A stretch of DNA of 23,316 nt, from positions 1 to 23,316 of the IMG/VR virus record IMGVR_UViG_3300017989_003100; one strand, written 5' to 3'. Within the stretch, counting starts at the first letter, position 1, and each line of letters opens with the position of its first letter. A model generated the notes under the pieces. That model was given only the letters and a program-made list of their open reading frames with translations. It did not search any database and had not been told where the DNA came from. Source of the stretch: a virus. Positions 2 through 23,093 of this stretch are shown one piece after another. The position numbers and the translations under genes are program-made.

Positions 2-622
2 TCCGCGGCTTATAAATATATGGAGGCTAGAGGATTTTCTGATGATCGTCTGCTTCTCTATGATGTTGGAGTAGCGACGAGCTTATCGAACCCTGATTAT
101 CATTTTGCTGAAGGTTGGGTCGTATTTCCTATTAGAGGACAAGATAGGCTATACGGATACCAACTACGTCAGCCGACATTCGATGATGTCGATCTTCGTT
201 ATTTAACCTTACCGGGAACAAAGTGTTCTTGGCACTTATTCGGTTATAGTCAAGCTGTCGATTCAAATTTCAGTTTTGTAATTTTAGTAGAAGGACCAAC
301 CGACGTTCTTCGTATAGGACCTCCTGCTGTGTGTATGTTTTCAAGTTCTTTATCCACGTTGCAGTTACAATTATTGTTCTCACGATGGAGTAACGGAACA
401 GTTTTGTATACTATCGACATGGACGATTCTAACTTTGAGTACAAGCAGCAGAAATTACGAGAAAAGTTGTCTGGTCAATTCGAGAACGTCATACCTTTGA
501 TGTTGGACCAAGGTCGAGATCCAGCGTCATATTCGCAGACAGAGATATGGGATAAGATTATATTTGCCCTTTCTTCTGTGAATATACCATTGGACATCAG
601 GGAGTTGCAATGTCAGATGTAG
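2..622 (+). CDS. DnaG-type primase, C-terminal part (5' end outside window)
   Basis: The frame is open to the window edge and reads AAYKYMEARGFSDD upstream of the first ATG (base 20). This matches the helical region before the TOPRIM fold of DnaG primases (pattern YL.eRG.s.e.i), so the gene very likely starts upstream and the ATG at 20 is internal. A TOPRIM signature follows: the glutamate motif LVEGPTDVL, then the acidic motif TIDMDD. DnaG-family primases make the RNA primers for lagging-strand synthesis. The zinc-binding domain would lie off the left edge. The stop overlaps the ATG of the polymerase gene (610), suggesting co-translation. A TOPRIM nuclease or topoisomerase fragment is less likely given this neighbour. 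Assignment rests on motif reading only. Confidence 0.75.
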   Translation, partial: SAAYKYMEARGFSDDRLLLYDVGVATSLSNPDYHFAEGWVVFPIRGQDRLYGYQLRQPTFDDVDLRYLTLPGTKCSWHLFGYSQAVDSNFSFVILVEGPTDVLRIGPPAVCMFSSSLSTLQLQLLFSRWSNGTVLYTIDMDDSNFEYKQQKLREKLSGQFENVIPLMLDQGRDPASYSQTEIWDKIIFALSSVNIPLDIRELQCQM

Positions 623-3225
623 CATTATTCGAGGCTGGGGATATTGCGAGAGAGATATTCAATTATTCAAATCAGTTAGACGATAGATTAGTAGAGTGGG
701 GTAGAAGGACTTTAGGGACAGTCGATGATGAGAATGATGTAATAATAGAGCATCTTTTAAACGCCATAACGCCGATTATTATTGACGGCGATCTACGAAC
801 ATTTCTTCCAGGACACCGGGCTCTCTCAGAACAGAGGGGGCCCGTTGCTTGTCCTATAATGGTCATCGGTAAGCAGCCAGGACGCCACGAGAATAATCAA
901 CAACGGTTATTCGTGGGGCCATCTGGTGTGTTTTTGACGAAGACAATTATCGATCTCGGCATTCCTATAGATGAAGTTTACTACACGAATGTATGCCGAT
1001 TTTGGCCTATAAATGGGTATAAAGACGCATATGCTAAGATGTGTTTGCCCATACTGGCGGCAGAAATTAATGCCGTAAGGCCGGACTTCATTTGGATTCT
1101 AGGCGCTCATGCTCTTAAGTTGATCTTAGGAAGTAAGTCCACATTATCGACTTATAGGAGTTCAACTATTGAGCGCGGGTCGTTTACGATTGTAGTTACT
1201 GGCCATCCAGCTGAAATTGAATATGTCCCAGAAAAGGTTGTAGATTTTCAAGCTGAAGCTGAGTATGTGGCTGGTGAGTATTTAGAGGGTTCTTGTGAAA
1301 GACACGAGTTCGAGTATACAGTCATTGATACTCCAGAACTGTTAGAACAAGCGAAACAAGAACTACTTCCCCATAATCAATACTTTATGGATCTTGAATG
1401 GTCGGGTCGGAGCTCAAAGTCTGGCGATCCAAGATCTGTTCAGATTAGCGCAAACGCTGAAAAGTCTTATGTGATCTGTTCCTTTAGTATCAATGAAAAC
1501 GGGGAAAAGGTTGAAAAGCTGTCGAGATCACAAATACATGACTTTCTTAGTGAAGTAGTTGGTAGGGACGAGGTTAGCATAATAGGCCATAACTTTAAGG
1601 CTGACCTCCATACGTTAGCTGACGGATATGGAATTGACTTGTCCCCACAATATCGTCGCGGCGCAGACACGATGTTAATGGATCATGTTCTGTTTCCAAC
1701 ACGATCACACGGATTAAAGCCATGTACGATTCGATATACGTCGTTGGGAAACTACGCTCATGAGTTGAACAAATGGATGTCAGATCATAGAAAGAGCGAG
1801 GCTGCCAGTGAATTACTAGGATTTGGAGATATTCCAGATCTCGTTTTTCTTCCATACGCGGCGACCGACCCAATTGCAACTTGTCTTGTCTACGAGCATT
1901 TAAAGCCATTGCTGGATGAGAACAGTCTGTTATCTGAAGTGTATAACAGAATAGAATTTCCAGCATCTTACGGCTTGTATCAGATGGAACGAAATGGTGT
2001 TATGTTCTCTATACAGAGGGCATTACACTATGTTCAGATGTTCCAATCTAAGCGCGATGAGATTCTAGATGAGCTTCAAAGCTTTGTAAGGCAAAAGCTA
2101 GATGAAGCGACAGCGCTTATGCACCCCAGCGCGGCTGAGAGTTTTAGGGGTATTTTTAAGGGTGGAGAGTTTAACCCGAATAGCGTTCCTCAAGTTCGGG
2201 CTGTTCTATTCGATTCGAAGATGTTGAATCTAACTCCAATTCAGACCTCAGGGAAGAATTCTCAGCCTTGGGAACAAGTTTACGGAACAGATGACGACGA
2301 AGTTGATAGCGAATATGATAGTGCTGGAACGGGAGAGACTACACTTCGGTTGCTCAGAGAGCAACACCCCATTGTAGGGAAACTTCTAGACTTTAGAATT
2401 CTGTCAAAGGTCTTAACAACGATTCTGAAGCAGACAGAAGACGGGAAGTACCAGAAGGGCAGTTTATTCTGTCATCTTGACCCAGATGAGCGTATTCGTT
2501 CGACACTACTTCAACTTGCCGAAACTGGTCGTTATACATCATCTCGACCAAATATGCAGAATAATCCGAAACGGCGGGAATCTGACTACGAACGAATCAT
2601 GGGTGAAAAGGTGGTTCTTCGTAGCGTGTTTACTGCTAGGCCGGGCTACAAGCTCGTTGAAATGGATTACAAGCAGGCTGAGTTGAATGTTCTTGCGTGG
2701 TTGTCCGGAGATCGAAAGTTTGAAACGGACGTTAATGACCACGATCTTCATAGTAAACGAGCGATAGAGATGTTTGGGTTGACATGCTCTGAAGCTGAAG
2801 TGAAGCATAATCATAAATCCCTACGGATTTGCAGTAAAACTGTGAACTTCGGCATCCCGTACGGACGAGGCGCAAGAGCAATCGTAACCGAGATCAAAAA
2901 AGAAGGCGGTCCCCCTTGTAGTGTTCAAGATGCTCGGGGCTGGATTCAGAACTTTTATGACACCTATCCGGGTGTTGCCCAGTTCATTTTTCAGTGCCGA
3001 GACTATGTTACTGACCCAGGCTATATCATAACGCCTTGGGGTAGGTATCGGCAATTTGAGCATTATGGGAATGAAGAGTTAATTATCAAGATGCAGCGTG
3101 AGGCTGCAAACTACCCTATTCAAGGGTGTGTTGCAGACGCCTTAAGCGTCGCGATAAATAACTTCATTGATTTCAAAGAAACGATGGAAGACCAGACTTT
3201 GTTCCAGTTTTTACAAATGAATTAG
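610..3225 (+). CDS. Family A DNA polymerase with N-terminal UDG-like domain; frame ends before motif C
   Basis: Replicative polymerase with three domains. Residues about 60-215 resemble a family 4/5 uracil-DNA glycosylase (GKQPGRHE, RLFVGPSG, VTGHP), an arrangement known from SPO1-like phage polymerases. Residues about 258-430 are a DEDDy 3'-5' exonuclease: MDLEW near 260, IGHNFKAD near 325, YAATD near 416. Residues about 440-870 are the polymerase domain: motif A DYKQAELNVLA near 686 and motif B R-x3-K-x3-FG-x2-YG near 739. After NYPIQG the frame runs only about 45 residues and stops at 3225. The expected motif C (HDE-type) is absent, and C-terminal-looking sequence continues in the -1 frame (separate entry). 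The start is the ATG at 610, overlapping the primase end. As read, the polymerase active site lacks its second catalytic acidic residue. Confidence 0.88.
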   Translation: MSDVALFEAGDIAREIFNYSNQLDDRLVEWGRRTLGTVDDENDVIIEHLLNAITPIIIDGDLRTFLPGHRALSEQRGPVACPIMVIGKQPGRHENNQQRLFVGPSGVFLTKTIIDLGIPIDEVYYTNVCRFWPINGYKDAYAKMCLPILAAEINAVRPDFIWILGAHALKLILGSKSTLSTYRSSTIERGSFTIVVTGHPAEIEYVPEKVVDFQAEAEYVAGEYLEGSCERHEFEYTVIDTPELLEQAKQELLPHNQYFMDLEWSGRSSKSGDPRSVQISANAEKSYVICSFSINENGEKVEKLSRSQIHDFLSEVVGRDEVSIIGHNFKADLHTLADGYGIDLSPQYRRGADTMLMDHVLFPTRSHGLKPCTIRYTSLGNYAHELNKWMSDHRKSEAASELLGFGDIPDLVFLPYAATDPIATCLVYEHLKPLLDENSLLSEVYNRIEFPASYGLYQMERNGVMFSIQRALHYVQMFQSKRDEILDELQSFVRQKLDEATALMHPSAAESFRGIFKGGEFNPNSVPQVRAVLFDSKMLNLTPIQTSGKNSQPWEQVYGTDDDEVDSEYDSAGTGETTLRLLREQHPIVGKLLDFRILSKVLTTILKQTEDGKYQKGSLFCHLDPDERIRSTLLQLAETGRYTSSRPNMQNNPKRRESDYERIMGEKVVLRSVFTARPGYKLVEMDYKQAELNVLAWLSGDRKFETDVNDHDLHSKRAIEMFGLTCSEAEVKHNHKSLRICSKTVNFGIPYGRGARAIVTEIKKEGGPPCSVQDARGWIQNFYDTYPGVAQFIFQCRDYVTDPGYIITPWGRYRQFEHYGNEELIIKMQREAANYPIQGCVADALSVAINNFIDFKETMEDQTLFQFLQMN

Positions 3226-4928: not shown

Positions 4929-5322
4929 TCTAAGAAATTACTATATTAATCTGCGAACTATAATTTCTAATGATACATTTAGGCGTATTCAAGAAAGAGA
5001 GGACCGTAATATTATTGCAGAAATGGATAGATTTCTTGCTCAACAAATAGAGGAAAGGATTCTTCCTCGACAAACTTCTACTACTACTAATATTGCCTCA
5101 CCAATAGCATTTGAGTGGGCTTTTGAGGAGATGCGACGTGCGTCAAACGCGGTAAATGATTATATAAGGGCGTATGCAAATCGTCAGTTTAATTGGGATG
5201 ACTTCTTACCTAAAGAAAGCGTCGCGTGTCATTTGTCTCAGTCGGACAAATTAAAATATGTTATAAGTGACGTGGCCGTTTTTACTTCTGACAGATATTG
5301 TTCGCCTCAGATACTTATTTGA
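4918..5322 (+). CDS. Protein of unknown function
   Basis: 134 residues, mostly helical and charged in the first 100 (NYYINLRTIISNDTFRRIQE, then IAEMDRFLAQQIEERI), with a short Thr/Ser linker near residue 58. No catalytic motif, signal peptide or membrane segment is evident. The ATG lies inside the end of the phosphoesterase gene, suggesting coupled translation. Its stop lies three bases before the first copy of the 16-bp palindrome, so this gene probably closes a transcription block. No family is recognised. Confidence 0.6.
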   Translation: MTDDLRNYYINLRTIISNDTFRRIQEREDRNIIAEMDRFLAQQIEERILPRQTSTTTNIASPIAFEWAFEEMRRASNAVNDYIRAYANRQFNWDDFLPKESVACHLSQSDKLKYVISDVAVFTSDRYCSPQILI

Positions 5323-5325
5323 AAA

Positions 5326-5341
5326 GTTGAGCGCGCTCAAC
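5326..5341 (+). repeat. Palindrome copy 1, GTTGAGCGCGCTCAAC
   Basis: A perfect 16-bp inverted repeat, three bases after a stop codon and about 40 bases before the next start. Identical copies occur at 13116 and 22060, also directly at gene ends. It could be a dyad operator for a phage regulator, or an RNA hairpin for termination or processing. No T-tract follows this copy, so on its own it is not a standard intrinsic terminator. Confidence 0.9.
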
Positions 5342-5350
5342 ATTTGTTAC

Positions 5351-15361: not shown

Positions 15362-15859
15362 ATGGAAAGTTATGAACCTGCTATATGTAAAGCGTTTTTC
15401 AATAAAGATAATATTCGTATAGGACCTTTTAAGTGTATATGGGATGAGGATGTAACTGGTGAGGATTGCTTTACTTGCTATATTCACCCTTCAGAAATTA
15501 ATATGCTAAACAAAGACCAGCTTCAAAATGAGAGGGGTGTAATTTTTAGATTTAATAGCAGGGTCTTTGCGTTCTTTCCTTCTCTATGCTCGGTATTTAT
15601 AACAACTTTATCGTTAAACGGATTTTCTGATTGTTTATCTATACCGCAGCCAGATGCGTTATACGTTCGTACGACAACATCCTTAGATACGGCAGTTTAT
15701 GATAGAAAGGATGAGACGTGGTTATATAGATATATTTTTTCATGGTCTATGGGGATGGTTAAAATGTTTATCCCAGGAGTTGGTGGTTTGTATACACCTC
15801 GTAGTAATGGTGCGGCAGAGGAAGTTTGGACTAAAGATATGTCAGTTTTAAGCAATTGA
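15362..15859 (+). CDS. Protein of unknown function
   Basis: 165 residues, starting two bases after the nrdD stop and so probably co-translated. Aromatic-rich, with cysteines scattered in the N-terminal half (PFKCIW, DCFTCYIHP, SLCSVF) and a hydrophobic stretch (YIFSWSMGMVKMFIPGVGGLY) near residues 120-142. It has no radical-SAM CxxxCxxC and cannot be NrdG. Coupling to nrdD suggests an accessory to nucleotide metabolism, but no family is recognised. Confidence 0.6.
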   Translation: MESYEPAICKAFFNKDNIRIGPFKCIWDEDVTGEDCFTCYIHPSEINMLNKDQLQNERGVIFRFNSRVFAFFPSLCSVFITTLSLNGFSDCLSIPQPDALYVRTTTSLDTAVYDRKDETWLYRYIFSWSMGMVKMFIPGVGGLYTPRSNGAAEEVWTKDMSVLSN

Positions 15860-15960: not shown

Positions 15961-16036
15961 GCGGGCCGAAGGAAATGGGTTATCACCTGAAAAGATAAAC
16001 CCCCACTTCTAACAACTTGCCCGCAGATACATTTCC
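15961..16036 (+). ncRNA. Structured RNA unit 0 (no tRNA body), pseudoknotted
   Basis: Outer helix: GCGGGC (15961-15966) with GCCCGC (16019-16024). Inner helix: GGGTTATC (15977-15984) with GATAAACCC (15994-16002, one bulge), capped by a short loop. A crossing helix, GGAAATG (15971-15977) with CATTTCC (16030-16036), makes a pseudoknot. The strand order GGCCG-AAGGAAAT-GGGTTA on the left and GAAAA...AACCC on the right aligns with units 1 and 2, which have a permuted tRNA-like body where this unit has a loop. Not a family I can name. Transcription from the + strand is inferred from the neighbouring tRNA motifs. Confidence 0.55.
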
Positions 16037-16161
16037 CGAGCCGGAGTAAGAGGATTATCAATTGATACCGCTGTGTGTGGGTTCGAGCCCCACCTCATCT
16101 GGGTGAGTAGCTCAATTGGAAGAGCGGCGGAAAAATTCTCCTTTTACATCTTTTGTTCGGG
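16035..16161 (+). ncRNA. Structured RNA unit 1 enclosing a circularly permuted tRNA-like body
   Basis: The 3' half of a tRNA comes first. Anticodon-stem strand CCGC 16068-16071, variable TGTGT, T-arm GTGGG-TTCGAGC-CCCAC 16077-16093 and acceptor CTCATCT 16094-16100. The 5' half follows with no gap: acceptor GGGTGAG 16101-16107, TA, D-arm GCTC-AATTGGAA-GAGC 16110-16125, G26 and GCGG 16127-16130. All four arms pair, and D-loop and T-loop consensus bases are present. Flanking helices enclose it: GAGGATT (16050-16056) with AATTCTC (16134-16140), and CCCGAGC (16035-16041) with GTTCGGG (16155-16161). No anticodon can be read, because the loop is where the two outer ends would have to be joined. No discriminator base or CCA lies between acceptor strands. 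Confidence 0.75.
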
Positions 16162-16180
16162 TCCTACTTTTTATGTATTG

Positions 16181-16331
16181 GTTGAGCCGAGTCGAAAGGG
16201 TTACCATCAATAAACACTAACAGAGCGGTTCGAATCCGTAACTCATCGAGGACAAGCCGTCTTGATGAGACTAGTCCAATTGGAAGAGACAAGTGCGAAA
16301 AACCCACCTTTCGAGTAGTGTTTTGCTCAAC
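16181..16331 (+). ncRNA. Structured RNA unit 2 enclosing a second permuted tRNA-like body
   Basis: Same order as unit 1 with different bases in the stems. CACT 16215-16218, T-arm GCGG-TTCGAAT-CCGT 16225-16239, then CTCATCGAG 16242-16250, a ten-base loop and CTTGATGAG 16261-16269. The last two form a 9-bp hairpin that includes the acceptor stem. A D-arm follows (GTC...GAC around AATTGGAA, 16274-16290), then AGTG 16292-16295, which pairs with CACT. The enclosing helices are TCGAAA-GGGTT (16192-16202) with AACCC...TTTCGA (16301-16305, 16309-16314), and GTTGAGC (16181-16187) with GCTCAAC (16325-16331). T- and acceptor-stem edges have A-A mismatches, and the D-stem is short, so this body is less canonical than unit 1. 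Confidence 0.68.
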
Positions 16332-16452: not shown

Positions 16453-16668
16453 ATGATCATCAAAAAGGGTGTGCAGCAAATGCATATGGACCTGAACGGC
16501 GCGACAAAGACGGTACAGGACGTTTTCGACGTCTACCGTTCAGTTCTCAACCTCGGAAACAACGTCAGCGTTCTCGTTGACGGTCGTGAGGCCAACATGC
16601 AGACGCAGGTCGGCGATAGCAATATCGTCGAGTTCACAGTGACAGAGGAGCTCCGCTCAAAGGGCTAA
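16453..16668 (+). CDS. Ubiquitin-like beta-grasp modifier (PRTRC protein C-like)
   Basis: 71 residues. The predicted order is beta-beta-helix-beta-beta: a strand pair to about residue 18, the helix TVQDVFDVYRSVL, strand NVSVLVDG, an EANMQTQVGDSN turn, and strand IVEFTVTEEL, ending RSKG. A free C-terminal Gly is what E1-type enzymes adenylate, so no processing would be needed. Size, fold order and a Gly end fit PRTRC system protein C and other bacterial ubiquitin-like proteins, and the next genes are E2-, JAB- and E1-like. ATG 16453 has GGAG 7 bases upstream; the open frame from 16390 has no SD. Codons favour C/G endings (GAC, GTC, CTC, AAC), unlike its neighbours, suggesting strong expression or separate origin. 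Confidence 0.75.
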   Translation: MIIKKGVQQMHMDLNGATKTVQDVFDVYRSVLNLGNNVSVLVDGREANMQTQVGDSNIVEFTVTEELRSKG

Positions 16669-16694
16669 GAGTCGCTGAGGCTACATTTTTTGTG

Positions 16695-16735
16695 AAAAAG
16701 GAAGGGAGAAATAAAATTCTCCCTTCCTTTTTTTT
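16695..16735 (+). terminator. Strong intrinsic terminator after the modifier gene
   Basis: GGAAGGGAGAA (16700-16710) pairs perfectly with TTCTCCCTTCC (16717-16727). The stem is extended by A-T pairs to about 16 bp and followed by an uninterrupted T-tract. The A-run on the other side would let it work in both directions. It sits between the modifier and the three enzyme genes, so the latter would be made by read-through or a promoter not seen here. Confidence 0.92.
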
Positions 16736-16755
16736 ATCCATCAGGAGGCTATAAA

Positions 16756-17418
16756 ATGGCCAAAAAAGCCGTTAAATCTGTTCGTAAAATAAAGCGAGTC
16801 CCGCCAGCCATCTTATCTGTTTCGTTAACTGGCAAAGATAATGATTTCGAATCGGGTAGAAGTTTTCATCTATTTGAAAATTACCCGATGATCCGCCCCA
16901 TAAAGTTTGACGGAAAGGATCACATACTACAACTTCCGTATAGCTATTACTTGATAACTGTTTATGCCACTGCAAAACAGTTTGCTATTAATTCCGTATC
17001 GATCGTTATATCTAAATCTAAGCTATTGGATTGGGAGCAACTAGTTTTGTGTATGCTTCCAAACACATACGCAGATAGCGGTCGGGTTTGTTGGGGGTGT
17101 CACGCAGTTAAGGATGTCGACATCTCGAACTTCTATGACGAAGTTGTCGCATTGTTTTGGAGCTCCGCGTTTAATCACGATATTGGGGTTAGTCCAAAAC
17201 ATTTTGACAAGACATTGCAAGAACGGCCGGGAGATTTCTCTCACATGTTCTGTGATGTTCTTTTGCGACACTTAAGATCTGCTGGCGTTGAAGAAAAGTA
17301 CGATAGAGTTCTTGCCGAAGCCGTAATTGAAGAAGCGCCGAAGAGTACTACAGCAGATAAGAAAAAGAAAACCGCGGACCCAGGAAATGACGCCGAAGAA
17401 ATTCGTGCGGCATTTTAG
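16756..17418 (+). CDS. E2-like protein (PRTRC protein B-like)
   Basis: 220 residues from ATG 16756, with AGGAGG eight bases upstream. An N-terminal beta region is followed by LPYSYYLITVYA (60-71), a strand, then LPNTYADSGRVCWGC (101-115). The arrangement of LPN, aromatic, G and C-x-G matches the E2-like fold of PRTRC protein B. Cys 112 (RVCWG) is the candidate catalytic cysteine, with Cys 115 three residues on. A helical ending with an F-x-SSAFNHDIG segment and a disordered Lys/Ala tail follow. It would receive the modifier from the E1 and pass it to a target. Assignment rests on local motif pattern and gene context, and whether Cys 112 is active is untested. Confidence 0.65.
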   Translation: MAKKAVKSVRKIKRVPPAILSVSLTGKDNDFESGRSFHLFENYPMIRPIKFDGKDHILQLPYSYYLITVYATAKQFAINSVSIVISKSKLLDWEQLVLCMLPNTYADSGRVCWGCHAVKDVDISNFYDEVVALFWSSAFNHDIGVSPKHFDKTLQERPGDFSHMFCDVLLRHLRSAGVEEKYDRVLAEAVIEEAPKSTTADKKKKTADPGNDAEEIRAAF

Positions 17419-17434
17419 TGAAAATTAGAGGTCA

Positions 17435-18391
17435 TTGAGTGTAGATATGAAACTTACAATATCGAGAGACAAACTTACAAGGTCTGAAACTCCGTATAAG
17501 GTGACTCTTATGGAAGCGACAGTTATTTACGCTAAGATGCTGGGCTGGGTGATAATCGCGGATAAAGATAGATGTCTGGTCCCTGACTGGGAAGAATTTC
17601 CGAGGATCCCGTCTTCCTGGTTCTGGTCACTGATACATGATTTGATGAAATACAAAAAAGAAGTAACGCTAGTGCTGTATATCGATACCGAGACTAAAGA
17701 GTGGAGTTTCGACGTGCCCGATCAATCGGGCAGTGGGGCTTCATGCCATTACGTAGTTCGTCGGTTTGATGATAACCGCGAGCCGTTTGGCACGATACAT
17801 ACACACCCCAATATGAGTGCGTTTCATAGTGGGACCGATCACCATGACGAGTCGGGCGAGAATAACTTAGACGGCGTACATTTCGTATTGGGATTTTCGG
17901 AATTTTCAAAATTCCAGATATCGGGTGTTTTGACTTGCAACGGTGCGAGATCAGAAATTGACATCTTTAAAGCCTTTGACATCGAGGAGATTGACTTAAG
18001 TGAAAGACTTAAGGAAGCTTCTAGCGCATACGATAACAATCCAGTCGTTAAAAAAGACAGAGCAACCAACAGAACCGTCTGCAAAGGAAGAGCCTTCTCA
18101 GCCGACGATGACGAATGGGAGTACGGATGGAAAGGATACAGCGGAGTCCCCGCAGGAGTCAGTTACGGGACTCCATATTGTCCAGGTAGGGGCGGGGGGA
18201 ATTGGAACCAAGCTGGCGGACGGAGTAGTACGCCGGTTGCAAAAGCAGGAAACGTCGTCCCTAGTAATAGTGGACGGGGACACAATAGAGCCGAGCAATC
18301 TGACAAGACAAGAGTTTACACCGATCCAAGTGGGAATGCCGAAAGCAGAAGCATTGTGCCAAGGGTTGCAAGAAAAATATCCGGAAGCTGA
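17435..18391 (+). CDS. JAMM/JAB metallopeptidase (PRTRC protein A-like) with long overlapping tail
   Basis: A complete JAMM motif lies at residues 122-135: H122-T-H124-P, seven residues after H124 to S132, then D135 (HTHPNMSAFHSGTD). These zinc peptidases cleave isopeptide bonds or trim ubiquitin-like proteins. The JAB domain ends near residue 190. The last 130 residues, from about base 18000, are Gly/Ser/Arg-rich, look disordered and are read in a different frame from the E1-like gene on the same DNA. The start is TTG 17435 after AGAGGT at spacing 5; ATG 17447 is too far from that SD. Since the modifier already ends in Gly, the enzyme more likely removes conjugates than matures a precursor. 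Confidence 0.85.
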   Translation: MSVDMKLTISRDKLTRSETPYKVTLMEATVIYAKMLGWVIIADKDRCLVPDWEEFPRIPSSWFWSLIHDLMKYKKEVTLVLYIDTETKEWSFDVPDQSGSGASCHYVVRRFDDNREPFGTIHTHPNMSAFHSGTDHHDESGENNLDGVHFVLGFSEFSKFQISGVLTCNGARSEIDIFKAFDIEEIDLSERLKEASSAYDNNPVVKKDRATNRTVCKGRAFSADDDEWEYGWKGYSGVPAGVSYGTPYCPGRGGGNWNQAGGRSSTPVAKAGNVVPSNSGRGHNRAEQSDKTRVYTDPSGNAESRSIVPRVARKISGS

Positions 18392-18941
18392 GTTGGATAT
18401 AGGATTCGTACATAAGTATGTGGGTGAAGAGTTTATCAAAGAGAACTTTAATGGCGGAAAGGTTGACCTCGTTCTTCTTGCGGTCGATTCTGACGTCACT
18501 CGTAAGTTCTTTATTGAGAGCTATGACGGGTGGATTATTTCTGGTCAAAACGACTACCAAGACGGTAGTACGTTTATTTGGCATCCAGAATTGAACCCGA
18601 ACCCCACAAAATCTCCTATTCCTGTTTATGTCGAGTTAGGTGAAAGCGGCGTAGACAGGTCGAAAATGAGCTGTCAGGAGATCTCTAATTTGGAAGGCGG
18701 AGAACAACTGAACTTCGCTAATTTTATGGCCGCAGGTTGGATGTTAGCGGCGCTGGAAGCTCTTGTCGGTAATATTCCGCTGGAGTGGAATTTCGTCTTC
18801 TTTAACCTTCAAACGGGAGAAGCCTCGTCTTCTTGGCGCGGGGTTGATGTTCGACCTAATTTGCTTCAGCCTCTTCGTAGCAGGCCTGACTTACCTGATA
18901 CAGAGGTCGAAGCGCCCGCCGAGGCCGCCGCGGCAGAGTAA
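18000..18941 (+). CDS. E1/ThiF-like adenylating enzyme (PRTRC ThiF-like)
   Basis: 313 residues. The Rossmann ATP site is GAGGIG at residues 64-69. Then come VDGDTIEPSNLTRQ (acidic, Asn and Arg-Gln residues of the E1 active site) and VGMPKAEAL with the conserved Lys. Cys 225 in SCQEISNLEGGEQ is the likely thioester cysteine. It would adenylate the modifier's C-terminal Gly. There are no ThiF-type zinc CxxC pairs. GTG 18000 has GAGGAG ten bases upstream; ATG 18108 in frame lacks a good SD. With the GTG start it overlaps the JAB gene by 392 bases in another frame. The first 55 residues are disordered and could be dispensable, but the ATP site itself still lies in the overlap. Confidence 0.85.
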   Translation: MKDLRKLLAHTITIQSLKKTEQPTEPSAKEEPSQPTMTNGSTDGKDTAESPQESVTGLHIVQVGAGGIGTKLADGVVRRLQKQETSSLVIVDGDTIEPSNLTRQEFTPIQVGMPKAEALCQGLQEKYPEAELDIGFVHKYVGEEFIKENFNGGKVDLVLLAVDSDVTRKFFIESYDGWIISGQNDYQDGSTFIWHPELNPNPTKSPIPVYVELGESGVDRSKMSCQEISNLEGGEQLNFANFMAAGWMLAALEALVGNIPLEWNFVFFNLQTGEASSSWRGVDVRPNLLQPLRSRPDLPDTEVEAPAEAAAAE

Positions 18942-19797: not shown

Positions 19798-19825
19798 GGG
19801 AGTTCTTTTGGAGGAACTCCCTTTT
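19798..19825 (+). promoter_or_regulatory. Leader hairpin around the portal ribosome-binding site
   Basis: GGGAGTTC (19798-19805) pairs perfectly with GAACTCCC (19814-19821), followed by TTTT. The SD GGAGG (19810-19814) lies in the loop and the first base of the stem. It is either a short terminator for upstream transcripts or a structure that gates portal translation. A transcript starting near 19801 would keep only part of the stem. Confidence 0.55.
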
Positions 19826-21659
19826 GGCGATTGATCTTACGAACCCAAATCTTCAATTTGGTGATTATGACATTCTAGGCTTTCCCAATAACCCCTTCTT
19901 CGATGACCCAATCGAAGGGCAGGTTGTTAGTCTAGATAGTGTATTTAAGTGGTGCGAGTACTTTTGGAATAGAACAGATTTTGTAAGTCAGGCTATTCGG
20001 AATGTGATCGCGTATTTCATTACTGATTATGATATACCCGACATAAGTTCTGAAAAAAGAATGGCTTACAAAACTGCGCTTGACCAACAAGCCGGGATAC
20101 CACAAGCACTGATGAAGTATGGTGAAACAATGATGACATACGGGATTTCTTTTATGGTCCCGTCTATGCCATTCATTCGCTTTTTAACTTGTCAGAATTG
20201 TGGGACGATTGTGGCTATGGACCCTGTTGAACCAGTTGATAAGCTCGAATTTGACGGAGACACCGGGCAGTTAGTTGGAAAGTGCCCTAAATGTAGTCAT
20301 CATGGTAGGATGATCCGTACAGATTCAGCTATTCGAGATTTGCGCAAGATCCGTTTCATGCAACTTACCCCGTATGAAATTGAGATCGACTATAACTCGA
20401 TTTCTGGCGACAAGGTGTTCTATCGTAAGGTGCCCAATGATGTAATTAGTGGGCTGCAAAAAAGCAATCCCTTCTACCTCGCTACGACTCCGGCTATGTA
20501 CTTTAAGATCTTCCAAAAGGGAGGTCAGCCACGTCAACAATTGGCGATTTGGAACAACGATAACTTTTTCAGCTCAGCATTCGAGCCGCCAAGTGGAATT
20601 TGCTTGAATGGCTGGGGCTGGCCGCCTTTGATGAATAGTATATATTCTATTTGGAAGCACCAGCTTGTTGAGAGACAAGAGGCGGCCTTAGCCATTGATA
20701 GTCTTACTCCTATCCGTATTTTTAGCCCACCTAAAGGCACTCAGTTTGATCCTATTGCGACTGAGGGAATAGCTTCGTTTGAGGCGAAAGTCCAAAATAT
20801 ACTTCAAGTTCATAGGCAAAACCCTCAATCATCACACGCGTTACCATATGCGCTGGAATATAATGCTTATGGTGGAGACGGTAAGTCACTATGGACAGCA
20901 GATATAAAGGCACTGAGTCTCGAAACTATTCTTAACGGTATAGGAGTTCCTGTCGACTTCTTCAAACGAACTCTTACCACACAAGCAGCACCATTATCAC
21001 TTCGTCTTATGGAGCAGGCTTGGTCACCATTAACGCAGAATATGAATCAAGCTCTGCAATGGATGGTGGGTAAAATTGTACGAAGGATGCGGTGGGATAA
21101 CATTAAGATCGCGCTACAGAAAACAACTATCGCCGATGATATTGAGCGCAAGCAGCTAATTTACAACATGGCGATGGCGAAGATGATTTCGAATACAACT
21201 CTGCTAGAGATGCTAGGATTTGATTCATACGAAGAGTTGAAGAAGATTCTAGGAGAAGAGCAGGCGAGAAATATCGCTGTTATGCGTCAGCAAGCCGATA
21301 TGATGGCGCAGGAAAATGTGACGCTAGCTCAAGAGGCCGGAACTCCGACTCCATCTATGGGTGGTATGGGGGCTGGAATGGCCGCTGGTGGTATGCCTGC
21401 ACCTATGATGCCAGACGATATGGCTGGCGGAGCTGGCGGAGCTGGAGGATCTTCACCGAGTGTTATGCAGCTTGAAGCCCAAGCTATGCAAATGGCACAA
21501 GTTTTAGCATCCATGCCTCCGGGGTCCCCTGATAGGGTATCTCAGCTACGAAACCTCTCATCGCAGAATCCCACCTTACACGCTCTTGTTAAGGATCGTT
21601 TATCCGCAATAGAGCAAAATATGGCCATGCAAGGCAGGGAGGCTGTGAGAGGTGGCTGA
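19824..21659 (+). CDS. Portal-like protein with zinc-ribbon insertion
   Basis: 611 residues from TTG 19824, nine bases after GGAGG. It follows the layout of phage portals: an N-terminal segment with FWNRTDFVSQAIRNVIAYFITDY, a central domain, a long helix (SIWKHQLVERQEAALAIDSLTPIRI), then LETILNGIGVPVDFFKRTLTTQ and a crown-like helical end. It would form the dodecameric ring for DNA entry at one head vertex. Cys 123, 126, 154 and 157 (CQNC, CPKC) form a zinc ribbon, unusual for portals. The C-terminal 90 residues are Gly/Met/Ala-rich with GGAGGAGG-like repeats and look flexible. Terminase is not in view. Confidence is from sequence pattern and size only. Confidence 0.7.
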   Translation: MAIDLTNPNLQFGDYDILGFPNNPFFDDPIEGQVVSLDSVFKWCEYFWNRTDFVSQAIRNVIAYFITDYDIPDISSEKRMAYKTALDQQAGIPQALMKYGETMMTYGISFMVPSMPFIRFLTCQNCGTIVAMDPVEPVDKLEFDGDTGQLVGKCPKCSHHGRMIRTDSAIRDLRKIRFMQLTPYEIEIDYNSISGDKVFYRKVPNDVISGLQKSNPFYLATTPAMYFKIFQKGGQPRQQLAIWNNDNFFSSAFEPPSGICLNGWGWPPLMNSIYSIWKHQLVERQEAALAIDSLTPIRIFSPPKGTQFDPIATEGIASFEAKVQNILQVHRQNPQSSHALPYALEYNAYGGDGKSLWTADIKALSLETILNGIGVPVDFFKRTLTTQAAPLSLRLMEQAWSPLTQNMNQALQWMVGKIVRRMRWDNIKIALQKTTIADDIERKQLIYNMAMAKMISNTTLLEMLGFDSYEELKKILGEEQARNIAVMRQQADMMAQENVTLAQEAGTPTPSMGGMGAGMAAGGMPAPMMPDDMAGGAGGAGGSSPSVMQLEAQAMQMAQVLASMPPGSPDRVSQLRNLSSQNPTLHALVKDRLSAIEQNMAMQGREAVRGG

Positions 21660-22151: not shown

Positions 22152-23093
22152 ATGCGTCGGACGTCGAAGGCGCATTCTCACAAAGCTAAAAGTGATTATT
22201 GCTTCATCTCACGCTTCGTAGAAACTCATGGATTAATTTGCCCTACTTTTGACATTCTTCATTCAAATGTTGGGTGCCCGTTTAAGTGTGGTTATTGCTA
22301 TCTTCAATCATTACTTGCGGGAAGTACAGATCCGAGATTCTATGATAATTACGAAGATATGGTGAAGGAAATTTCGAAATGGGGTTTGGAAAATCCCAAT
22401 GGCAGGATAAAAGCCGGTGGAGTAAGTGACGGGCTAGCTTCAGGATCAGATTATTTGTTATATCTGATTCCTGTATTTAGACTGTTGCCAGACGCTAATT
22501 TGGTCGTTTTAAGTAAGGCTGGGTATGATAACGCAGAAGCGAAGAAACCTCTGCGTAAACTTTCGCCAGTTCCTAGTGTGACATTTAGTTGGACACTCAC
22601 ACCAGAAAAGTATAGGCGAGATTACGAGGCACAGACTTCCACTACCTATCAGAGAATTAAGCTTGCGCGAGCCTACGCAAATGAAGGCTGGCAGATCAGA
22701 GCTAGAATAGACCCCATTTTACATGTTGACGGATGGGAAGCCCAATATATTTCCCTATGTCAGATGATTGTCGGGTCTGGAGTTCCATTTGATCGTGTTA
22801 CTTTGTCTTATCTCAAATGGACGCCTAGACTTGTAGGGGTCAGTCGTACTCACAATATCCGATATAACTTTAGGGATGTATTTACAGATGTCACGGAATC
22901 GTTGGACGAAACAGGCGATATTGAAAAGGTCGGCCAAGACCATCATGCAAGTTCTGAAATTCGTCTTCGTTCGTATAATTTAATCCGTGATAATCTCGGT
23001 GACATCCCAGTTGCATTATGCAAAGAAACGCCAGAAGTCTCTCGGGAGTTCCATGGAGATAATCCTAGAACGCCTTGCGACTGTATGCATTAA
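22152..23093 (+). CDS. Radical SAM protein, spore photoproduct lyase-like
   Basis: 313 residues. The cluster motif CxxxCxxC is at Cys 42, 46 and 49 (GCPFKCGYCYLQ). The CYLQ that follows is characteristic of spore photoproduct lyase (SPL), as are the later VVLSKAG, VTFSWTLTP, RIKLARAYANEGW and RARIDPI blocks in SPL order. SPL uses an S-adenosylmethionine radical to reverse the thymine dimer formed in spores or dehydrated DNA. It is not NrdG-like in length or sequence. The C-terminus ends CDCMH, an added Cys pair. It may repair phage DNA or carry out a related radical reaction. Terminator 22080 isolates it from the portal unit, and no clear promoter is seen between. Confidence 0.75.
   Translation: MRRTSKAHSHKAKSDYCFISRFVETHGLICPTFDILHSNVGCPFKCGYCYLQSLLAGSTDPRFYDNYEDMVKEISKWGLENPNGRIKAGGVSDGLASGSDYLLYLIPVFRLLPDANLVVLSKAGYDNAEAKKPLRKLSPVPSVTFSWTLTPEKYRRDYEAQTSTTYQRIKLARAYANEGWQIRARIDPILHVDGWEAQYISLCQMIVGSGVPFDRVTLSYLKWTPRLVGVSRTHNIRYNFRDVFTDVTESLDETGDIEKVGQDHHASSEIRLRSYNLIRDNLGDIPVALCKETPEVSREFHGDNPRTPCDCMH

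What the first reader, a model, noticed from the sequence alone, without database searches (positions are those of the whole stretch)
15961..16331. Three-copy RNA frame in which a tRNA body replaces a hairpin loop
Left flanks of the three units align (G-R-GCCG-AG-AA-A-GGRTTA, with ATCA-type bases after). Right flanks align as GAAAA-pyrimidine-CC-TT. Each has an outer helix (GCGGGC/GCCCGC, CCCGAGC/GTTCGGG, GTTGAGC/GCTCAAC) and an inner helix (GGGTTATC/GATAAACCC, GAGGATT/AATTCTC, GGGTT/AACCC) with different but pairing bases. Unit 0 has only a short loop where units 1 and 2 have the tRNA. This looks like a self-contained RNA module, possibly a ribozyme or processing platform that frees and joins the permuted tRNA. 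The arrangement formally resembles a permuted intron-exon, although I could not fit a group I core.
Basis: partly seen in the sequence, partly recalled or inferred. Interest (0 to 1): 0.88.

Follow-up and report, generated by a model that had tools for sequence, protein, structure and literature searches.

The report
Three phage Y RNAs in tandem
The three repeated RNA units are a small array of Y RNAs, noncoding partners of the Ro60 protein, carried by a phage; two have the permuted tRNA look-alike module already known from bacterial Y RNAs, so this is a new example of a known kind and not a new ribozyme.

Summary
In detail: three tandem RNA units (15961-16024, 16035-16161, 16181-16331) share an outer helix, an asymmetric internal loop and an inner helix. 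Units 1 and 2 replace the loop with a T-arm / hairpin / D-arm, that is, a circularly permuted tRNA body. The proposed ribozyme or permuted intron-exon is not supported. The units are Y RNAs. Unit 1 matches Rfam YrlA. It also matches, at E about 3e-15, a covariance model I built only from other viral RNAs. Of 18 viral contigs found by this RNA pattern alone, 12 encode Ro60 (TROVE domain), against 1 of 18 with ordinary tRNA pairs. Unit 0, which has no tRNA body, carries a signature (CCGAA-N5-TGGGTTATCA). Of 52 viral contigs with that signature, the 8 that also keep the closing helix and 3' YUU strand include 7 with Ro60; of the other 44 only 2 do. Mixed arrays of tRNA-bearing and tRNA-less Y RNAs occur in those contigs, for example L021, where they lie just upstream of Ro60. 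Most likely each unit docks on a Ro60 ring through its lower stem, and the tRNA mimic engages RNA-processing enzymes. The window (a 23-kb fragment) holds no Ro60 gene. New member of a known kind.

The parts
15961..16024 (+). Unit 0: Y RNA without tRNA module (outer helix 15961-15966/16019-16024; 5' Ro-site strand CCGAAGGAAATGGGTTATCA; 3' strand AACAACTTG)
   Evidence: Fold. Rfam nematode sbRNA (Y RNA homologue) model RF01656 29.5 bits, E 0.02 in the window, 4e-4 in the local search. Signature with closing helix predicts Ro60 in viral contigs
16035..16161 (+). Unit 1: YrlA-type Y RNA; outer helix 16035-16041/16155-16161, inner helix 16046-16054/16139-16147
   Evidence: Rfam YrlA 43.4 bits, E 9e-7; independent viral CM R1 54.6 bits, E 2.7e-15 for 16034-16158
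16068..16130 (+). tRNA-like module of unit 1: closing helix CCGC/GCGG (16068-16071/16127-16130), T-arm 16077-16093, acceptor-like hairpin 16094-16107, D-arm 16110-16125
16181..16331 (+). Unit 2: divergent YrlA-type Y RNA; outer helix 16181-16187/16325-16331; inner helix 16193-16202/16301-16305 and 16309-16313
   Evidence: not significant with R1 (only the T-loop, 8.5 bits)
16215..16295 (+). tRNA-like module of unit 2: closing helix CACT/AGTG (16215-16218/16292-16295), T-arm 16225-16239, long acceptor-like hairpin 16242-16269, D-arm 16274-16290
   Evidence: 0 of 20,000 shuffles; shares the D-loop CAATTGGAAGAG with unit 1

Best explanation
A phage-borne tandem array of three Y RNAs. The lower stem of each (outer helix, 5' CCGR / 3' YUU(G) asymmetric internal loop, inner helix ending in a GUUAYC-type loop) is the docking site for a Ro60/Rsr ring. 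Unit 0 is a minimal, tRNA-less Y RNA. Units 1 and 2 are YrlA-type, with a permuted tRNA mimic (T-arm, closed acceptor hairpin, D-arm) as effector domain. By analogy with studied bacterial Y RNAs, the stem holds and gates Ro60, while the tRNA mimic recruits or competes for tRNA/RNA-processing enzymes (PNPase tethering; substrate of TruB and DusA). This would steer structured-RNA decay or repair during infection. Shown here: family identity of the RNA and its genomic link to Ro60 in other viruses. Inferred: Ro60 binding, partner enzymes, effect on infection. The source of Ro60 (elsewhere in this phage, or the host's) is unknown.
For: Rfam YrlA on unit 1, E 9e-7. CM R1, built from 10 other viral RNAs with the window excluded, hits 16034-16158 end to end at 54.6 bits, E 2.7e-15. 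Contigs retrieved by RNA pattern only: 12 of 18 with permuted modules encode TROVE, against 1 of 18 tRNA-pair controls (Fisher p 3e-4). The Ro60 loci score about 29-48 bits against Rfam YrlA, the same range as the window. Unit 0: 52 viral contigs match CCGAANNNNNTGGGTTATCA; those with the closing helix next to a 3' YUU are 7/8 Ro60-positive, the rest 2/44 (p 2e-6). tRNA-less Y RNAs interleave with YrlA units in the same arrays, and their stems covary (98% of cells paired; 14 of 15 pairs with changes on both sides; slid controls 34-52%). L021 holds unit-0-like and YrlA units (4727 down to 4265) directly upstream of Ro60 (4135-3251). The nematode sbRNA model hits unit 0 and the frame of unit 1.
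Against: No TROVE protein in this record, even with a phage-derived profile at maximum sensitivity, although in most relatives it lies within about 2 kb of the RNA. The Rfam score is below the curators' cut-off (43 against 69), as it is for the Ro60-linked viral RNAs. Unit 2 is not significant with R1. The tRNA-less model R2 does not find unit 0 significantly (8.6 bits, E 5.6); its inner helix is interrupted. No expression data.
Confidence: 0.93

Rival explanations
1. A self-splicing or self-processing RNA (permuted intron-exon or ribozyme) that releases a circularly permuted tRNA.
For: Formal resemblance: 3' half of a tRNA placed upstream of its 5' half inside a structured frame.
Against: No group I/II or ribozyme family in Rfam down to E 1; unit 0 keeps the frame without any tRNA; no anticodon arm in units 1 and 2; the acceptor ends are fused by a short loop with no CCA; the same frame is tied to Ro60 genes elsewhere.
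Confidence: 0.02
2. Y RNAs used without a phage Ro60: the phage supplies Y RNAs that load onto, block or redirect the Rsr of its host (a variant of the best explanation, not an alternative identity).
For: No Ro60 gene in 23 kb around the array. Other YrlA-bearing contigs, up to 117 kb (L110), also show no TROVE match.
Against: The record is a fragment and so may be the others; most Y-bearing viral contigs do carry Ro60.
Confidence: 0.25
3. Decaying tRNA-gene debris or a cryptic permuted tRNA cluster with no Y RNA function.
For: Unit 2 has weak T- and D-stems and a different free fold; no ordinary tRNA genes in the window.
Against: Outer and inner helices are kept in all three with different bases; unit 1 scores end to end with the Y RNA model; unit 0 cannot be tRNA debris.
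Confidence: 0.04

Closest known systems
YrlA (Y RNA-like A; Rfam RF02553) of Salmonella and other bacteria and phages
   Same: Y stem plus permuted tRNA-like module in the order T-arm, acceptor hairpin, D-arm, with a short closing helix. A review describes the D, T and acceptor arms on a Ro60-binding stem (PMC8394870). My memory of Chen et al. 2014 (not held) is that likely Y RNAs lie near Ro60 in >250 bacterial and phage species, at least one per species tRNA-like.
   Different: Below the Rfam cut-off; no Ro60 gene next to it in this fragment; three copies, one tRNA-less, with divergent stems.
Nematode stem-bulge RNAs and vertebrate Y RNAs (Rfam RF01656 as proxy)
   Same: Unit 0 matches the Ro-site strands and UGGGUUAUCA (29.5 bits). 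The UUAUC motif is noted for vertebrate Y RNAs and sbRNAs (PMC4726728).
   Different: Short loop and phage context. The review states that bacterial Y RNAs are not homologous with the vertebrate clades, so shared ancestry against convergence at the Ro site is open.
Circularly permuted tRNA genes
   Same: The 3' half of the tRNA precedes the 5' half.
   Different: No anticodon arm, no CCA or junction processing signals; embedded in a Y stem.

Membership tests
Bacterial/phage Y RNA, YrlA type (RF02553) | Permuted tRNA-like module (T-arm, closed acceptor hairpin, D-arm) | tested here: met
   Unit 1. Unit 2: only. Unit 0 lacks it, as do the tRNA-less Y RNAs in relatives' arrays
Bacterial/phage Y RNA, YrlA type (RF02553) | Long stem from pairing of 5' and 3' ends with an asymmetric internal loop (Ro60-binding site) | tested here: met
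   All three units, different pairing bases; same architecture in Ro60-linked viral RNAs with strong covariation
Bacterial/phage Y RNA, YrlA type (RF02553) | Encoded near, or in the same genome as, Ro60/Rsr | tested here: inconclusive
   None in the 23-kb fragment; present in 12/18 and 9/52 contigs found by RNA pattern
Bacterial/phage Y RNA, YrlA type (RF02553) | Binds Ro60/Rsr; tRNA-like module modified by TruB/DusA | not testable with these tools
   needs biochemistry
Group I/II intron, permuted intron-exon | Catalytic core recognised by covariance models | tested here: not met
   no intron family at E <= 1 in the window or the local search
tRNA gene, including circularly permuted | Anticodon arm and separable acceptor ends | tested here: not met
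   ARAGORN 0 genes (it may not model permuted genes); no convincing 7-nt anticodon loop in unit 1 or, by reading, in unit 2; acceptor strands joined by a short loop

The most novel reading that the evidence does not exclude
A phage lineage that carries several Y RNAs but no Ro60 of its own and uses them, tRNA-less and tRNA-mimicking together, to capture or redirect the host's Ro60/RNA-decay machinery.
Probability: 0.2. Interest if true: 0.55.

Novelty: new member of a known kind. Interest (0 to 1): 0.3.

Why it matters
It adds an otherwise unplaced phage (no close relative found for its portal or polymerase) to those carrying Y RNAs. It shows that viral Y RNA arrays commonly mix tRNA-mimicking and bare Y RNAs. 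It also gives a 15-base signature plus helix rule that predicts Ro60-bearing viral contigs. What Y RNAs do for phages is open; compact arrays such as this are convenient test objects.

Tried and rejected
Ribozyme/PIE reading: no Rfam support. Relatives of this phage by portal or DNA polymerase in IMG/VR: none; portal in GenBank phages only at about 24% identity; the ThiF-like protein none. DNA similarity of the array to phages: only tRNA T-loop scraps. TROVE in the window with Pfam and with a phage-made profile: none. R2, a CM from eight tRNA-less viral Y RNAs, found further Y RNAs in the same loci and in contigs brought in by the unit-0 pattern but not unit 0 itself, so unit 0 rests on the signature-Ro60 link and the sbRNA model. 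The first tRNA descriptor missed unit 2 by one base of spacing and was loosened. Promoter and terminator scans were uninformative. The Rfam RsaD hit at 5183-5345 (32 bits, cut-off 50) was treated as chance.

Full report
What is there. The window is a whole 23,316-base virus record, probably a fragment. Between an NrdD gene plus a 165-aa ORF (ending at 15859) and a small gene at 16453 lie three tandem RNA units: 15961-16024, 16035-16161 and 16181-16331. Each has an outer helix of 6-7 pairs, an asymmetric internal loop with CCGR on the 5' strand and a pyrimidine-UU(G) on the 3' strand, and an inner helix ending at a GUUAYC-like loop. The helices use different bases in the three units. Units 1 and 2 replace the loop by a closing helix, T-arm, hairpin, D-arm and closing helix. 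A descriptor of this arrangement fits only these two places in the window and none of 40,000 shuffles.

Family. Rfam finds YrlA (Y RNA-like) on unit 1, E 9e-7. It also finds, more weakly, the nematode stem-bulge RNA family, a Y RNA homologue (PMC4726728), on unit 0 and on the frame of unit 1.

Independent test with viral relatives. I scanned IMG/VR for the T-arm / 12-20 nt / D-arm pattern and set ordinary tRNA pairs aside with ARAGORN. Of 18 contigs with a non-tRNA match, 12 encode a TROVE/Ro60 protein; of 18 contigs with ordinary tRNA pairs, 1 does (p 3e-4). The 18 were picked by eye for Y-like flanks before any protein search. A covariance model from ten of these RNAs, with no window sequence, hits unit 1 over its full length at 54.6 bits, E 2.7e-15. 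E-values of these models are rough, but nothing else in the window exceeds 9 bits.

Unit 0. The 15-base signature of its 5' strand was scanned in IMG/VR (52 contigs, mostly chance). Those in which the bases before CGAA pair with bases directly after a YUU downstream number 8, and 7 of these encode Ro60; of the other 44 only 2 do (p 2e-6). The two exceptions (L021, L042) look like Y RNAs that miss the strict rule. I had picked most of these loci by helix before the Ro60 search, but I saw the Ro60 results for three (L021, L027, L049) first, and the formal rule was coded afterwards; the window meets it with 6 pairs. tRNA-less Y RNAs interleave with YrlA units in the same arrays (L106/L180, L131/L174, L123, L167, L101, L058, L074/L179). 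Their stems show 98% paired cells and changes on both sides in 14 of 15 pairs, against 34-52% paired in slid controls; that alignment was laid out by structure, so it leans towards it. L021 is the nearest layout: unit-0-like and YrlA units in a row directly upstream of Ro60.

Unit 2. It has the Y frame and both tRNA loops in order, with a changed D-stem (GTC/GAC) and closing helix (CACT/AGTG). It is not significant with R1 and free folding prefers another structure. I call it a divergent YrlA-type unit with moderate confidence.

Mechanism. Published work on bacterial Y RNAs has the stem hold the Ro60 ring and the effector domain tether PNPase or act as a tRNA mimic (PMC8394870, PMC7790460). 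Nothing here tests that for this phage. No Ro60 is encoded in the fragment, so the partner is either elsewhere in the phage genome or the host's.

Novelty. Phage Y RNAs are known: PMC7765460 notes phages with YrlA; PMC7824862 notes TROVE proteins in jumbo phages; and, from memory, Chen et al. 2014 (RNA 20:1715, not held) reported likely Y RNAs near Ro60 in >250 bacterial and phage species. This is therefore a new member of a known kind.

Noticed in passing
L074, L083, L086, L100, L101, L106, L110, L115, L131, L156 (viral YrlA-type RNAs): Between the GUUAC motif and the T-arm there is a hairpin with a 7-nt loop like a true anticodon loop (read from alignment A1: U33 and purine 37 in 10 of 10; anticodons differ, e.g. 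GTG, GTT, GAT, GCT), so these Y RNAs seem to mimic a complete four-arm tRNA (an automatic hairpin search picks the same loop in some but not all). A pattern of this kind hits more than 100 bacterial stretches, so it is not phage-specific; whether it is described I could not check. The window units lack it.
   Followed up: partly
16453-18941: Directly downstream of the array: a 71-aa ORF without family match, a weak Prok-E2_D/PRTRC-B match, a Prok-JAB/PRTRC-A match and a ThiF-like E1, i.e. what looks like a ubiquitin-like conjugation cassette in a phage.
   Followed up: no
610-3225: Family A DNA polymerase with an N-terminal uracil-DNA-glycosylase domain in one ORF.
   Followed up: no
22152-23093: Radical-SAM-like protein with weak similarity to spore photoproduct lyase.
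   Followed up: no
19824-21659: Portal-like protein with only about 24% identity to known phages (Vibrio phage D69, Salmonella phage Arash); no close relative of this phage in the collections scanned.
   Followed up: partly
L110 (117 kb contig), L151 (98 kb contig): Contigs with clear YrlA-type RNAs but no TROVE match; possible Y-RNA-without-Ro60 phages, or fragments.
   Followed up: no
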